A stretch of 35,013 bases of DNA from positions 1-35,013 of the forward strand of contig JAAYGG010000011.1 of the NCBI GenBank assembly GCA_012727895.1, in the 5' to 3' direction. Source of the stretch: Bacillota bacterium (GTDB lineage: Bacteria; Bacillota; UBA4882; UBA10575). The position numbers were made by a program, and so were the translations under genes. This document shows, piece by piece, positions 20,893-26,264 of the stretch. Position 1 is the first letter of the stretch. Every line of letters begins with the position of its first letter. The notes beneath the pieces were generated by a model. It saw nothing but the letters and a program-made list of their open reading frames with translations. It was not told the DNA's origin and did no database searches.

Positions 20893-21792
20893 TTATTCAT
20901 AAAAAGCCAAGGCCTTTTCGAGGCGTTCTTTAATAATCCTCCTGATATGGGGCGGTTCGAGCACTTCCGCGTACATGCCGAAAGAGAGAATAAAACCATA
21001 GACCCACTCATCCTCGGGGTAGGAAAAGCGGACTGTGAAACTGCCATCCGCGTGCGGGGCGATCTGGGATTCCTCAAACTCATCATAAACCCGGTAGGCC
21101 TGGGTGGAATGGATCCTCATGGTGATTTGGACCTCAGGAACGGCGGGTTCATCTTCAGCCACGAGCGGGTTTTCCTTTTCCGGCCGGCGCATAAACTCCT
21201 CCGGGAGCAGGCGGATGTTTTTGATCCGGTTAAGCTTGAAAAGGCGCTGGCCCTGCTTGTTGCGGCAAAAAGCCCGGAGATACCAGGCCTTGCTCTTGAA
21301 CCACAATTGTAAAGGCTCAACGGTCCGGGTGGTTTTCTCACCGTACCTGTTATAATAGGTAAAAGAGAGGAGTTGCCGGTTGAGAATCGCCTCCTTAATC
21401 GTGGCCAGTGTCTCCTGTTTGGCCGGGCCCCAGCCAGAAAAATCCACGGCAATCCAGTCCACTAATTTCTGCCCAAAAATGGCCCTTAATTTCGTCAGCA
21501 CCTTTTCCGCCTGGGGATAATGGACGGCGCTCAACCCGTGCAAGGCCGCAAGGATCTCATTTTGCTCTTCTTGGGAAAAGACCGATTTGTTCAGGACAAA
21601 GCTGTCGACCAGTTTGATGCCGCCGTTCCGGCCCTGGCTGGTGTAGATAGGGATGCCGGCCTGGCATAAGCCATCAATATCACGGTAGATGGTCCGGGGC
21701 GATACTTCAAACTCGGCAGCCAATTCACGGGCCGTCACAATCCCTTTATTCAACAGGATAAAGACGATCCGGAGCATCCGGTCGATCTGCAT
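20893..21792 (-). CDS. WYL-domain HTH transcriptional regulator (YafY family)
   Basis: Transcription factor (299 aa). Residues 1-60 are a DeoR/HTH_11 winged helix (ARELAAEFEVSPRTIYRDIDGL, with the QGRNGGIKL wing). A WYL domain follows around residues 140-210, with the eponymous triad in SKAWYLRAFC and the downstream RLFKLNRIKNI; a C-terminal WCX-type extension completes it. WYL domains bind small ligands or nucleic acid. The start ATG 21792 lies 83 nt from a perfect inverted repeat (21876-21903) that recurs before the zinc-ribbon gene, so it probably controls both. No other obvious target is seen in the window. Confidence 0.9.
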   Translation of the reverse strand: MQIDRMLRIVFILLNKGIVTARELAAEFEVSPRTIYRDIDGLCQAGIPIYTSQGRNGGIKLVDSFVLNKSVFSQEEQNEILAALHGLSAVHYPQAEKVLTKLRAIFGQKLVDWIAVDFSGWGPAKQETLATIKEAILNRQLLSFTYYNRYGEKTTRTVEPLQLWFKSKAWYLRAFCRNKQGQRLFKLNRIKNIRLLPEEFMRRPEKENPLVAEDEPAVPEVQITMRIHSTQAYRVYDEFEESQIAPHADGSFTVRFSYPEDEWVYGFILSFGMYAEVLEPPHIRRIIKERLEKALAFYE

Positions 21793-21865: not shown

Positions 21866-21871
21866 ACTATA
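21866..21871 (-). promoter_or_regulatory. Putative -10 box of the WYL regulator gene
   Basis: TATAGT on the minus strand. The usual -35 position is taken by the inverted repeat centred 18.5 bp upstream and has no consensus hexamer. Confidence 0.45.
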
Positions 21872-21875
21872 CCAT

Positions 21876-21903
21876 AAAATATGACAGGAGTATGTCATAT
21901 TTT
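21876..21903. promoter_or_regulatory. Operator 1 (inverted repeat) before the WYL regulator gene
   Basis: AAAATATGACA-N6-TGTCATATTTT: perfect 11-bp arms with a 6-nt spacer. It shares the core TATGACA-N6-TGTCATA with operator 2 at 22361-22380. Confidence 0.7.
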
Positions 21904-21975
21904 CCCCGCCAAGAAAAGCACGAATAACAGGGTGGACAATTCTCACCTCACAGGGTTGCAAATTGTTACCCCAAT

Positions 21976-22000
21976 AAAAAACTCCCCCGGTGGCGGGGGA
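21976..22000 (-). terminator. Terminator of the zinc-ribbon gene
   Basis: On the minus strand: TCCCCCG/CGGGGGA stem (22000-21983) with a 4-nt loop, one G, then six T (21981-21976). It lies 46 nt past the zinc-ribbon stop and separates that gene from the WYL regulator promoter. Confidence 0.8.
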
Positions 22001-22046
22001 AAAGATACCAATGAAAATCTAAAGGGCAAAAAAGAGGAAAACGGGC

Positions 22047-22313
22047 TTACCTTTGCTGCCAGCGTTTTAACTTGGGGAAGTACTCCTGCATTGCCGCCCG
22101 GGCCGTGTTTTCATCGGGATAGGCCCCTGCCTGCAGCGCATGGGGGATGCAGATCTCGATCATCTCTTCCATTGTCACTCCGGAAGTGAAAGCGCCGTCT
22201 TTATAACAATAGATGCAGTACTCCCCGTTTTTGGTGCCGTCGGCGTTCGTCCCGAGCAAAGACTCTTCCGTTAAAGGCATGGCGCAGCTTTGACAGAGTT
22301 TTTCTCCGGTCAT
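22047..22313 (-). CDS. Zinc-ribbon domain protein of unknown function
   Basis: An 88-aa protein. A treble-clef or zinc-ribbon site is formed by C7-x2-C10 (LCQSCAMPL) and C33-x2-C36 (EYCIYCYKDG), with the phrase GTNADGTKNGEYC between; this matches the putative zinc-ribbon family common in Clostridia and Bacteroidetes. The rest is a helical tail (MEEMIEICIPHAL...AMQEYFPKLKRW). ATG 22313 has AAGGAGGG upstream; the longer in-frame start at 22379 would place the operator inside the coding region. Own promoter, own terminator. It shares its operator sequence with the WYL regulator gene, so the two form a small regulon. Confidence 0.85.
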   Translation of the reverse strand: MTGEKLCQSCAMPLTEESLLGTNADGTKNGEYCIYCYKDGAFTSGVTMEEMIEICIPHALQAGAYPDENTARAAMQEYFPKLKRWQQR

Positions 22314-22344
22314 CTTTGACCCTCCTTTTTCTTGTGTTAATTGC

Positions 22345-22350
22345 ATTATA
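22345..22350 (-). promoter_or_regulatory. Putative -10 box of the zinc-ribbon gene
   Basis: Perfect TATAAT on the minus strand, 31 nt before the start codon. The centre of operator 2 is 20.5 bp upstream, in the place of a -35 box. Confidence 0.6.
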
Positions 22351-22360
22351 TAACCGGTAA

Positions 22361-22380
22361 TATGACAACTGCCTGTCATA
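22361..22380. promoter_or_regulatory. Operator 2 (inverted repeat) before the zinc-ribbon gene
   Basis: TATGACA-N6-TGTCATA, 7-bp perfect arms. Same core and spacing as operator 1 and the same place relative to the -10 box. Confidence 0.7.
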
Positions 22381-22507: not shown

Positions 22508-23404
22508 ATGGACCGGATGCATACACCCGTGCCAGTCAGCGAAGAAACCCTGAAAAAACTGCTTATCTTCCAAAGAACCGAGATTACCGAGTATCACATA
22601 TACAGCTTGCTCGCGGCGAAAGTTAAGGATGAAGAGAACCGGAGGGTATTGGAGAGAATCGCCCGGGAGGAACTGGCCCATTCTGAGTTCTACCGGAGAT
22701 ACACCCAAAAAAACATAAAACCGCAGCGGCGGAAGGTTTTCTTCTATTACTGGGCGGCCCGGATCTTTGGCTTGACTTTCACCCTGAAACTGATGGAGAA
22801 GGGCGAGGAGCGGGCACAAAGTGCTTACATGGAAATATTCGAAGAACTGCCGGAAGTGCGGAAAATTGCTGAAGAGGAAAAACACCATGAGTACCAGTTG
22901 CTCAACCTTATTACCGAGGAACACCTGGATTACGTGGGTTCGATCGTCCTTGGCCTCAACGATGCCCTTGTTGAACTCACCGGGACCCTGGCCGGGCTGA
23001 CTTTTGCCCTCCAGAACACCCGGCTGATTGCCTTGGCCGGCCTGATCACCGGCATCGCGGCTTCGTTTTCCATGGGGGCTTCGGAATATCTCTCCACCAA
23101 GGCGGAGGGGGGCGGCGGGCAGGAACCGTTCAAATCCGCCGTTTACACCTGGATCGCCTACCTGATTACTGTAGCCGCCTTGATCCTCCCCTATTTGCTG
23201 CTGAAGAATTACCTTTTCAGCCTGGGTATTACCCTGCTGGTGGGCATCTTGATTATCCTTGTTTTTAACTTCTATATCTCCGTCGTCAAAGATCTGCCTT
23301 TCCGCAGGCGGTTTTGGGAAATGACCGCAATCAGCCTCGGGGTGGCGGCTTTAAGTTTCAGCATCGGCTATGTTATCCGCCTTCTTCTGGGGGTGGAGAT
23401 CTAG
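22508..23404 (+). CDS. mbfA: Ferritin-like/VIT1 membrane iron exporter (MbfA type)
   Basis: Membrane protein (298 aa) joining a rubrerythrin-like four-helix domain to a VIT1/CCC1 transporter. The soluble part (about residues 12-140) has iron-ligand patterns EITEYHIY, EELAHSEFY and EEEKHHEYQL (two ExxH pairs). From about residue 145 the VIT1 part begins with YVGSIVLGLNDALVELTGTLAG and GITAGIAASFSMGASEYLS-like text (here LITGIAASFSMGASEYLS), followed by three hydrophobic helices. The known homolog MbfA exports iron and protects against iron and peroxide stress. ATG 22508 has GGAGGTG (22497-22503). It is monocistronic, with its own promoter starting about 60 nt from operator 2. Confidence 0.9.
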   Translation: MDRMHTPVPVSEETLKKLLIFQRTEITEYHIYSLLAAKVKDEENRRVLERIAREELAHSEFYRRYTQKNIKPQRRKVFFYYWAARIFGLTFTLKLMEKGEERAQSAYMEIFEELPEVRKIAEEEKHHEYQLLNLITEEHLDYVGSIVLGLNDALVELTGTLAGLTFALQNTRLIALAGLITGIAASFSMGASEYLSTKAEGGGGQEPFKSAVYTWIAYLITVAALILPYLLLKNYLFSLGITLLVGILIILVFNFYISVVKDLPFRRRFWEMTAISLGVAALSFSIGYVIRLLLGVEI

Positions 23405-23530: not shown

Positions 23531-24892
23531 ATGAAAGAAACTGCAAAAAAAGACCGCACCCATAGCCTGGGAGAGGAGAAAATCATCCGGCTTTTACTCC
23601 GTTTTTCCCTCCCGGCCACCCTGGCCATGGCGGTCAACGCCTCTTACAATATTGTCGATACCATCTTTGTCGGGCGGCTGGGGGCCGACGCCATCGCCGC
23701 CCTCTCCATCTGTTACCCTGTGCAGATGCTCCTGGGCGCTATTGCCATTGGCACGGGGATCGGCGCCGGTTCCCTGATCGCCCGTTCCCTCGGGGCCAAA
23801 GACCAAAAGAAAGCTTCGTTTGTGGCCGGGCAGGTTTTTCTCTTGAGCCTCCTTTTCGGCCTGGCAGCAACCTTAACCGGTCTTTTCTATCTCCGGCCTT
23901 TGCTGGTCTTGTTCGGCGCCACCCCGGAGATCCTCGAGCTGGCTGTGGAGTATATGTCGGTAATCGCCAACGGCGCCCTTTTCCTTTTCTTCATTATGAT
24001 GATGAACCATGTCACGCGGGCGGAGGGGAACCCCAACTTTTCCATGGCGGTTATGATCTCTTCCGCAGTCATAAATATCATCCTCGATCCCATCTTCATC
24101 TTTGGTCTGGGAATGGGGATCAAAGGCGCCGCGGTGGCCACGGTCATCGCAAAAATAGCGGGGGTTGCCATTCAATTATGGTATTTTCTCACGGGTCGCA
24201 GCGCCCTGTCGCCTTCCCTAAAACATCTCCGCCCGGATCTCCGGATTATCTGGGATATTTATAAAGTGGGCTTGCCTTCGCTCTTGATCCAGATCTCCGG
24301 CAACCTGGCCATAATTATCGCCAACCAGATCCTTGGCGGTTTTGGCTATATCCCCATCGCGGTGATGGGGATCATCCTCCGCATGCAAATGCTGGCCTTC
24401 ATGCCGGTGATCGGCATCTCCCAGGGGCTGCTCCCGATTGTCGGGTATAACTTTGGCGCAAAAAAATACCGGCGGATCCGGGAAGCCGTTTTCAAAGGCG
24501 CCGGCGCCGGCAGTCTTTACTCCACTCTGGTCGGGATCGCCTTTTTCCTCTTCCCCGGCTTTTTCCTGAAGATTTTCACCGGCGACCCCGGAGTATTGGA
24601 TGTGGGCATTAAGGCCGTGCGGATCATGGTCTTAATCTACCCGCTTTTGGGCCCGCAAACCGTCTCCATCACTTTCTTCCAGGCAATCGGCAAGGGCCTC
24701 CCGTCCCTCTTCCTCTCCGCACTGCGCCAGTTCATCCTCTATGTCCCCTTGCTCTTTCTCCTGCCGCGTTTCTTCGGCCTCGCCGGGATCTGGACCGCCA
24801 CCCCCGTCGCGGATCTGCTGGCCTTTACGATTACTCTCGCCCTGGTCATCCGCGAATTCCGGATCCACGGGATCTCTCTTTCCCGTTCATAA
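23531..24892 (+). CDS. MATE family efflux transporter (second of three)
   Basis: A 453-aa membrane antiporter with 12 predicted helices. The first half has FSLPATLAMAVNASYNIVDTIFVGRLGADAIAALS and GIGAGSLIARSLGA; the second half repeats the fold from about KVGLPSLLIQISGNLAII with GISQGLLPIVGYNFGAK, the family's typical mid-protein phrase. This last motif and the N-terminal GEEKIIRLL are typical of the Bacillota NorM/MepA-like branch. Start ATG 23531, with a weak AAGGTG upstream. Its 3' end overlaps the opposite-strand MATE gene by 47 bp. Substrate unknown; MepA relatives export cationic drugs. Confidence 0.92.
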   Translation: MKETAKKDRTHSLGEEKIIRLLLRFSLPATLAMAVNASYNIVDTIFVGRLGADAIAALSICYPVQMLLGAIAIGTGIGAGSLIARSLGAKDQKKASFVAGQVFLLSLLFGLAATLTGLFYLRPLLVLFGATPEILELAVEYMSVIANGALFLFFIMMMNHVTRAEGNPNFSMAVMISSAVINIILDPIFIFGLGMGIKGAAVATVIAKIAGVAIQLWYFLTGRSALSPSLKHLRPDLRIIWDIYKVGLPSLLIQISGNLAIIIANQILGGFGYIPIAVMGIILRMQMLAFMPVIGISQGLLPIVGYNFGAKKYRRIREAVFKGAGAGSLYSTLVGIAFFLFPGFFLKIFTGDPGVLDVGIKAVRIMVLIYPLLGPQTVSITFFQAIGKGLPSLFLSALRQFILYVPLLFLLPRFFGLAGIWTATPVADLLAFTITLALVIREFRIHGISLSRS

Positions 24893-26264
24893 CCCGCCTT
24901 TTGAGGTTCTTTGACAGTTCCGGCAGTTTTCTTAAGGGATTGACCCCAAAATAGAAACGGAGGAAATTGACGATTCCCCGGGTAAGCTCATCAAACATGG
25001 TGGTGAGATATAACCCGAGCAACCCCCATTTCAGGTAAAAGATGGTGAAAGCGGAGAAACCAAGAACAAAAATTGTCCCGTAAATTTGTGAATAAAGCAT
25101 CCATCTGGTATCCCCGGTGGCGCGGATGGCATGGCCCGAGACGATATTGGATGATTGAAAGACCAGCAAAATTCCGGAGATACGGAGAAGCTGGCCGGCT
25201 CTTGCCAGGACCTCCGGGTCCGAAGTGAAGATCCGGATTAAAACCCCGGGGATGAGCGCAAAAATCAACCCCATAACCACGCAGGTAGCAACGGAGATCT
25301 TCTGCGCGTAAAGGGTGATTTTTTTTGCGTCGTCAAACCTTTCTTCACCCCAGTACTGGCCGACCATGGTCGTGGTGGCTTTGGCAAAACCCATATAGAA
25401 CAAAACAGGGATCGTCTGAATACTGGTGACCAGCGAATAAATGCCGATGGCCATTTCATCAATGAAGTTAAGGAACCGGACCAGGACCAGGTTCCCCGCT
25501 TGATAGAGAAAGATCTCCACGCCGCTGGGGATGCCGAGGCGGGCGACCTCCCAGAACGGCTGCCATTTTGGTCTAAACAAAGCCTTTTTATCAAGGGAGA
25601 AAGGTAAATTGCCCTGAAGGAAGAGGCTGTAAAAGAGGATAGCGCAACCTACCAAGTTGGCGATTAAGGTGGCCAGCGCGGCGCCTTCCAACCCCATGGC
25701 GGGAAGACCCCAGTGCCCAAAGATCAGGAGCCAGTCCAGGAAGATATTGAGAAAACTCCTTACTACCCCCACCACCATAATCGGGCGGGTGGTACCCACC
25801 CCTTCCAGGATTGAAGCAGCCGCAACCTCGATACCGAAGAAAATCAGATAAACCCCGATAATCCGGACGTAAACCGCGGAAAACCGGAGAATATCACCGG
25901 TGGCGCCGAATAAAGAGAAGATTTTCTCCGCACCGAAAAACCAGAGGAGGAAAAGGCCGGTGGAGATGAGCGTAAGATAAAAAAAGGCCGACTGGCTCAA
26001 CTCTTGCGCCCGCCGGTAATCCTTTCTGCCGACGTTTTGGGCGACCAAAACCGTCAAACCGGTGGCAATGGCAAAAAAGACAAAAGCCATGGCGTTGTAA
26101 GGGATCATGACGTTCCCTATGGCCGATAAGTAACGGGCATCCAGGTTACCGACAAAGGCTCTGTCGATTAGGAGCATGAGGTGGTGGGTTATCCGCTGGA
26201 CTATAATGGGCAAGGCGATGGCGAACATCATCCGCTGCTCTGTTGTTCTTCGTTTTTTCCACAT
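24846..26264 (-). CDS. MATE family efflux transporter (third of three)
   Basis: A 472-aa MATE protein, clearly different from the convergent neighbour. Early motifs are IALPIIVQRITHHLMLLIDRAFVGNLDARYLSAIGN and VLVAQNVGRKDYRRA; the second half has RLGIPSGVEIFLYQAGN and STTMVGQYWGEE-like text (TTTMVGQYWGEERFDDA). ATG 26264 directly follows AGGAG with no spacer, so the true start may lie at the next Met (about residue 12). The gene has a clear promoter (26314-26341). The C-terminal 15 codons overlap the neighbour's 3' end. Substrate unknown. Confidence 0.9.
   Translation of the reverse strand: MWKKRRTTEQRMMFAIALPIIVQRITHHLMLLIDRAFVGNLDARYLSAIGNVMIPYNAMAFVFFAIATGLTVLVAQNVGRKDYRRAQELSQSAFFYLTLISTGLFLLWFFGAEKIFSLFGATGDILRFSAVYVRIIGVYLIFFGIEVAAASILEGVGTTRPIMVVGVVRSFLNIFLDWLLIFGHWGLPAMGLEGAALATLIANLVGCAILFYSLFLQGNLPFSLDKKALFRPKWQPFWEVARLGIPSGVEIFLYQAGNLVLVRFLNFIDEMAIGIYSLVTSIQTIPVLFYMGFAKATTTMVGQYWGEERFDDAKKITLYAQKISVATCVVMGLIFALIPGVLIRIFTSDPEVLARAGQLLRISGILLVFQSSNIVSGHAIRATGDTRWMLYSQIYGTIFVLGFSAFTIFYLKWGLLGLYLTTMFDELTRGIVNFLRFYFGVNPLRKLPELSKNLKRRVMNGKERSRGSGIRG

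What the first reader, a model, noticed from the sequence alone, without database searches (positions are those of the whole stretch)
21876..22380. Two copies of one operator define a WYL regulator/zinc-ribbon mini-regulon
TATGACA-N6-TGTCATA occurs at 21876-21903 (longer arms) and 22361-22380. In both cases it is centred about 19-21 bp upstream of a -10 hexamer on the minus strand, where a -35 box should be. The regulator gene and the zinc-ribbon gene are the two downstream genes, and a terminator separates them. WYL-regulator operators are rarely defined.
Basis: partly seen in the sequence, partly recalled or inferred. Interest (0 to 1): 0.65.

Follow-up and report, generated by a model that had tools for sequence, protein, structure and literature searches.

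The report
WYL activator box at two promoters
Two copies of a short palindrome mark promoters that a damage-sensing-type (WYL) regulator very probably switches on, and the same box at the same fixed distance from the promoter core recurs across many Bacillota in front of toxin-resistance, DNA-repair and some CRISPR genes.

Summary
TATGACA-N6-TGTCATA occurs exactly at 21880-21899 and 22361-22380 and nowhere else in the 2.3 Mb genome (0.005 places expected). Both promoters, their order and the terminator between them are conserved in six relatives. The 'operator' reading is right in substance, but the likely sign is activation, not repression. In 80 named loci chosen only by the regulator protein, TGACA-N6-TGTCA occurs 68 times in 49 loci (about 1 expected). 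A sigma-A -10 hexamer follows TGTCA at 11-12 nt in 54 of 59 non-redundant sites (control distances 1-14). The N6 spacer falls where the -35 hexamer should be and does not match it. A blind scan of 299 Bacillota genomes gives 47 matches at this spacing and 1 at a shifted spacing. This is the geometry reported for the WYL activators PafBC (TGTCR-N11-TANNNT), DriD and SiwR. Targets in relatives are mainly GyrI-like, DinB/ClbS-type and zinc-ribbon genes, plus DNA-repair and some cas genes. The best model is a homodimeric WYL activator, possibly triggered by ssDNA, that turns on the zinc-ribbon gene. At its own extended -10 promoter the sign is open. I found no earlier description of this box. Binding, sign and signal are untested.

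The parts
22361..22380 (.). WYL box (operator) of the zinc-ribbon promoter; read on the minus strand ATGACA-GGCAGT-TGTCAT
   Evidence: exact match; conserved in six relatives
22345..22350 (-). -10 hexamer TATAAT of the zinc-ribbon promoter, 12 nt after TGTCA; no -35 and no TGn extension
   Evidence: spacing statistics; blind scan
22047..22313 (-). Zn_ribbon_2 (PF12674) protein, 88 aa, the activated target
   Evidence: Pfam E 4.9e-31; alignment A3; 13 of 18 PF12674 genes of 17 genomes carry the box (12 with at most one mismatch, one with two)
21982..22001 (-). intrinsic terminator between the two transcription units (8-pair stem, then TTTTTT)
   Evidence: equivalent hairpin and T-run in six relatives
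21876..21903 (.). WYL box of the regulator's own promoter, longer arms (core 21880-21899)
   Evidence: distal TATGACA invariant and proximal half degenerate in six relatives
21866..21874 (-). extended -10 (TGG-TATAGT) of the regulator promoter, 10 nt after TGTCA; the alternative TAGTAT at 21869-21864 is 12 nt after
20893..21792 (-). HTH_11-WYL-WCX transcription factor, 299 aa, proposed homodimeric activator
   Evidence: Pfam; best solved relatives PafBC/PafC; orthologs

Best explanation
The product of 20893-21792 binds TGACA-N6-TGTCA as a homodimer with one half-site on each side of the -35 position. At the zinc-ribbon promoter, which has a perfect TATAAT but neither a -35 nor an extended -10, the bound dimer stands in for the missing -35 contact and recruits sigma-A polymerase, as PafBC, DriD and SiwR do. 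By analogy the trigger is ssDNA or another nucleic-acid signal of genotoxic stress in the WYL domain. The regulator's own promoter carries the same box but has an extended -10, giving a basal supply of regulator and some autoregulation of undetermined sign. Shown here: the sites, their conservation, the family-wide association of the box with this regulator, and the fixed geometry. Inferred: binding, homodimer, activation, signal, and a protective role for the zinc-ribbon protein.
For: Box next to the regulator family: 68 exact TGACA-N6-TGTCA in 49 of 80 loci picked by regulator protein only, 0-2 per simulated set, other spacers 0-4 except N5 (12). Fixed spacing: 54 of 59 non-redundant protein-ascertained sites have TANNNT at 11-12 nt, controls 1-14. 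Blind scan of 299 Bacillota genomes: 47 matches at N11/12 in 33 genomes, reversed-pattern control 2, shifted spacing N14/15: 1. 15 of 38 blind-scan loci carry a homologous WYL regulator within the locus fetched. At a 17-nt spacer the -35 hexamer matches TTGACA at 3 of 6 positions at most. The two half-sites differ in orientation with respect to the -10: T before TGTCA in 56 of 96 proximal halves, A in 60 of 96 distal halves. All seven zinc-ribbon promoters of the family keep TGACA-N6-TGTCA-N12-TATAAT. PafBC promoter consensus tTGTCRgtg-8 nt-TannnT (PMC5656591) has the same 11-nt spacing; DriD half-sites flank the -35, sandwich sigma region 4 and lie at a fixed distance from the -10 (PMC12340889); SiwR is a homodimeric activator binding a palindrome between -35 and -10 (PMC10693628). 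SiwR residues needed for DNA binding (R38/R42) and activation (R204/R207) plausibly correspond to invariant R33/R37 and R183/K186 here (by residue pattern, no SiwR sequence compared).
Against: No expression or binding data. At the window's regulator promoter the better -10 (TATAGT) is 10 nt, not 11-12 nt, from the box and has an extended -10, so that site alone would also suit a repressor. A palindrome over the promoter is also classic repressor anatomy. Lineages are related, so counted sites are not all independent. The ssDNA signal rests on homology only, and one key Arg is Lys here.
Confidence: 0.78

Rival explanations
1. The WYL protein is a classical repressor: it sits over the -35/-10 spacer of both promoters and blocks RNA polymerase until a ligand releases it.
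For: Palindrome overlaps both core promoters; the regulator promoter has an extended -10 that needs no -35; other WYL proteins such as BrxR have been reported as repressors (own knowledge).
Against: The zinc-ribbon promoter has no -35 and no extended -10, so it should be weak without help. Repressor sites need no spacing held to 11-12 nt from the -10 across unrelated target genes. The half-sites are oriented with respect to the -10. The nearest solved relatives by sequence are PafBC proteins, which activate.
Confidence: 0.13
2. Dual mode: activator at the zinc-ribbon promoter (spacing 12, no -35) and autorepressor at its own extended -10 promoter (spacing 10), a homeostatic loop.
For: Different spacing and -10 class at the two promoters, each conserved in six relatives.
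Against: In other Bacillota the regulator's own promoter mostly has the activator spacing of 11 nt, and TAGTAT at 12 nt is available in the window. This is a refinement of the best explanation, not an exclusive rival.
Confidence: 0.35
3. Another regulator binds the box and the WYL gene is merely linked.
For: 23 of 38 blind-scan loci have no WYL homolog within the 3-6.5 kb fetched; the own genome has a second WYL gene on C92.
Against: 49 of 80 loci chosen by the regulator carry the box, and it follows the regulator with changing partner genes.
Confidence: 0.05
4. Chance or repeat-derived palindromes.
For: Two hits at up to 3 mismatches in a 35 kb window are not rare.
Against: Exact genome-wide uniqueness and conservation, spacer and distance specificity.
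Confidence: 0.01

Closest known systems
SiwR of Mycobacterium smegmatis (PMC10693628)
   Same: Single-gene WYL activator, homodimer, acts on an adjacent small stress gene through a palindrome between -35 and -10; DinB-superfamily targets also appear among the Bacillota boxes (L013, L125-L128).
   Different: SiwR's palindrome is 19 bp, imperfect, with a GGA triplet at -26; here it is a perfect TGACA-N6-TGTCA, and the target is a Zn_ribbon_2 gene.
DriD of Caulobacter (PMC12340889)
   Same: Pseudo-palindrome ATACGAC-N7-GTCGTAT centred on the -35 at a fixed distance from the -10, poor -35 match, DNA-binding domains on both sides of sigma region 4; half-site GTCR-TAT resembles TGTCA-TA.
   Different: Spacer of 7 rather than 6; different target set; C. 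crescentus -10 elements are weak, here TATAAT.
PafBC / RecA-NDp (P1) promoters (PMC5656591, PMC11804915)
   Same: Closest solved relatives by sequence; P1 consensus tTGTCRgtg-8 nt-TannnT equals the proximal half-site plus the same 11-nt spacing.
   Different: PafBC is an asymmetric heterodimer with a non-palindromic site and one -26 element; here the distal half-site TGACA is added and the regulator is one gene.

Membership tests
HTH-WYL-WCX transcription factors | N-terminal HTH, WYL domain, WCX domain | tested here: met
   PF08279, PF13280 and PF25583 all above the curated cut-offs
HTH-WYL-WCX transcription factors | Basic ligand-groove residues of the WYL domain | tested here: inconclusive
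   RLFKLNRI with R183, K186 and R189 invariant in nine orthologs; PafB/PafC have RxFRxxR, so one Arg is Lys here
WYL activators working at the -35 position (PafBC/DriD/SiwR mode) | Site at a fixed distance from the -10, no functional -35 | tested here: met
   for the zinc-ribbon promoter and relatives; the window's regulator promoter deviates (10 nt)
WYL activators working at the -35 position (PafBC/DriD/SiwR mode) | Transcription depends on the protein; ssDNA ligand | not testable with these tools
   needs in vitro transcription, EMSA and ssDNA-binding assays
PafBC proper | pafB-pafC pair or fusion at the Pup ligase locus, non-palindromic P1 motif | tested here: not met
   single gene with a palindromic site; flanking genes are a GH10 enzyme and a zinc-ribbon gene
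SiwR proper | Adjacent DinB-superfamily target and GGA at -26 | tested here: not met
   target is PF12674; the box after TGTCA reads TATTACC

The most novel reading that the evidence does not exclude
Bacillota possess a widespread second genotoxic-stress circuit, separate from SOS, run by homodimeric WYL activators through one promoter class, TGACA-N6-TGTCA-N11/12-TATAAT. It switches on genotoxin-resistance proteins (GyrI-like, ClbS/DinB, zinc-ribbon), DNA repair and, in some lineages, CRISPR-Cas; the mycobacterial RecA-NDp promoter is the half-site version of the same ancestral box.
Probability: 0.4. Interest if true: 0.78.

Novelty: new variant of a known kind. Interest (0 to 1): 0.6.

Why it matters
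WYL proteins are among the commonest uncharacterised regulators in bacteria, and only a few have a defined site. A box with a strict promoter grammar lets regulons be read from sequence across a phylum. It turns 'function unknown' genes such as Zn_ribbon_2 into candidate genotoxin-response genes, and it suggests that PafBC, DriD and SiwR share one activation geometry extending to Bacillota. It also links CRISPR and other defence genes to the same type of switch.

Tried and rejected
Window-only statistics for the motif were not convincing, so the genome and relatives were used. A PDB sequence search with the zinc-ribbon protein gave no hit; its confident AlphaFold2 model (pLDDT 91) has no PDB match with E below 3, so no biochemical function is proposed for it. 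Further TGACA-N6-TGTCA places in the genome were checked: C107 and C75 lack a -10 at 11-12 nt on the strand of the box; C111 has TATAAT at 11 nt but sits beside a LexA-box-like element and inside a terminator-like hairpin, so it is not claimed as part of this regulon. Control of the divergent gene at 22508 was considered and rejected, because there is no -10 at 11-12 nt in that direction. Literature searches for an earlier description of the box found none in the open-licence library, which does not cover subscription journals.

Full report
Observation. The two palindromes are exact and at the stated places: 21880-21899 (arms extend to 21876-21903) and 22361-22380. Inside the window two hits at up to 3 mismatches are unremarkable (12 of 100 shuffles), but they are the only exact matches in the 2.31 Mb genome, where 0.005 are expected. 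The regulator (20893-21792, minus) has HTH_11, WYL and WCX domains. The other gene (22047-22313, minus) is a Zn_ribbon_2 protein of 88 aa. A terminator lies between them.

Conservation. Six genomes of the same family have the same order: zinc-ribbon gene, terminator, regulator. All seven zinc-ribbon promoters (window and six relatives) read TGACA-N6-TTGTCA-N12-TATAAT, while the 12-nt spacer sequence itself varies. The regulator promoters all read TATGACA-N6-(T/C)GTC, with the proximal half degenerate, then an extended -10, TGG-TATAGT, 10 nt further on (11 in L007). Both sites of the finding are therefore under selection, but the two promoters are of different types.

The box belongs to the regulator family. 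I used a nine-sequence regulator alignment to fetch 80 named loci. In these 637 kb, TGACA-N6-TGTCA occurs 68 times in 49 loci and the N5 form 12 times; other spacers give 0-4, and simulated sequence gives about one. The boxes lie in front of the regulator itself or of the next gene. One locus is from Candidatus Endomicrobium (L039), outside Bacillota by my own knowledge, and also has a zinc-ribbon target.

The geometry. Non-redundant sites in loci chosen only by protein were tested: 54 of 59 have a TANNNT hexamer (at least 4 of 6 to TATAAT) 11 or 12 nt after TGTCA, against 1-14 of 59 at control distances. For an assumption-free test, the full pattern TGACA-N6-TGTCA-N(11,12)-TATAMT was run over 299 Bacillota genomes: 47 matches in 33 genomes, reversed control 2. 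Shifting the -10 by 3 nt leaves 1. Of 38 loci found this way, 15 carry a homologous WYL regulator in the few kilobases fetched. With a spacing of 12, the N6 between the half-sites is exactly the place of a -35 hexamer at 17 nt from the -10; it matches TTGACA at 3 of 6 positions at most. The half-sites are also oriented: TTGTCA is preferred next to the -10 and ATGTCA (read outwards) on the far side.

Mechanism. A promoter with a good -10, no -35, no extended -10 and a protein site at a fixed distance over the -35 is activator anatomy. It matches three studied WYL proteins. PafBC-dependent promoters have the consensus tTGTCRgtg-8 nt-TannnT (PMC5656591), that is, TGTCR, 11 nt, TANNNT: the proximal half of the present box with the same spacing. 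PafBC inserts between promoter DNA and sigma region 4 (PMC11804915). DriD binds ATACGAC-N7-GTCGTAT with its two DNA-binding domains on both sides of the -35, sandwiching sigma region 4, at promoters with 1-2 of 6 -35 matches and a constant distance to the -10 (PMC12340889). SiwR is a homodimer that activates adjacent DinB-like genes from a palindrome between -35 and -10, and its activation needs WYL arginines (PMC10693628). The closest solved sequences to the window's regulator are PafBC and PafC. I therefore infer a homodimeric activator. The ssDNA signal is an inference by homology. At its own promoter, with an extended -10 and spacing 10, the sign of autoregulation is open.

Targets. Among 63 non-redundant proteins downstream of boxes in related genomes, the commonest Pfam families are GyrI-like (18), Zn_ribbon_2 (12), Cass2 (12, overlapping with GyrI-like), DinB_2 (11) and DUF1706, the ClbS/DfsB family (9). 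Single cases include 3-methyladenine glycosylase, TatD, Cas6 and Cas3. GyrI-like enzymes hydrolyse DNA-alkylating cyclopropanoids (PMC5684135), and ClbS detoxifies colibactin (described in PMC10693628). The theme is genotoxin protection, so a protective role for the zinc-ribbon protein is a fair guess, no more. Of 18 Zn_ribbon_2 genes in 17 relatives, 12 have the box with at most one mismatch and one more (L162) has it with two; the four most divergent members (L164-L167) do not. The zinc-ribbon fold model has no useful PDB neighbour.

Limits. There are no experimental data. Lineages are related, although duplicates at 65% identity were removed. Target genes were called as the nearest downstream ORF with a ribosome-binding site, which gives some errors. 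The literature library excludes most subscription journals, so 'not described before' is provisional.

Verdict. The likely mechanism is activation by a WYL homodimer replacing the -35, and the box is far more widespread than a mini-regulon. Novelty: a new variant of a known kind.

Noticed in passing
G000:C111:3052-3084 (L171, L197), G000:C75:5057-5104 (L185, L190); relatives L187, L188, L189, L192: Some TGACA-N6-TGTCA boxes carry a Gram-positive LexA-box-like GAAC-N4-GTTC exactly 2 nt upstream, near nuclease/defence-type genes; in L189 a WYL gene lies directly upstream of the box and a cas3-like gene directly downstream. Possibly a composite SOS plus WYL promoter used by a second WYL clade.
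   Followed up: partly
L132, L144, L189, L195 and possibly L181, L191: The same box, mostly with the 11-nt spacing, precedes CRISPR genes (Cas3, Cas6) in other Bacillota.
   Followed up: partly
L168 (G010:C60:15416-15625): In one relative the start of the zinc-ribbon gene and the last 60 residues of the WYL regulator share one 99-aa open frame, as if a deletion had joined them; the box upstream survives with one mismatch.
   Followed up: no
window 22508-23404 (+): Divergent neighbour: rubrerythrin-like N-terminus plus VIT1-type membrane domain, resembling an MbfA-type iron exporter; no WYL box geometry in its direction.
   Followed up: partly
window 23531-24892 (+) and 24846-26264 (-): Two convergent ORFs that look like MATE-type efflux proteins overlap at their 3' ends by 47 bp (identity by eye only).
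   Followed up: no
G000:C92:2499-2690: Second and only other WYL-domain gene of the genome, a divergent one.
   Followed up: no
G000:C122:3578-3591 (L204): Perfect palindromic CGAACATATGTTCG (LexA-box-like) near the start of a gene that looks TcmP-like, followed by a DUF5131-like gene (identities by eye).
   Followed up: no
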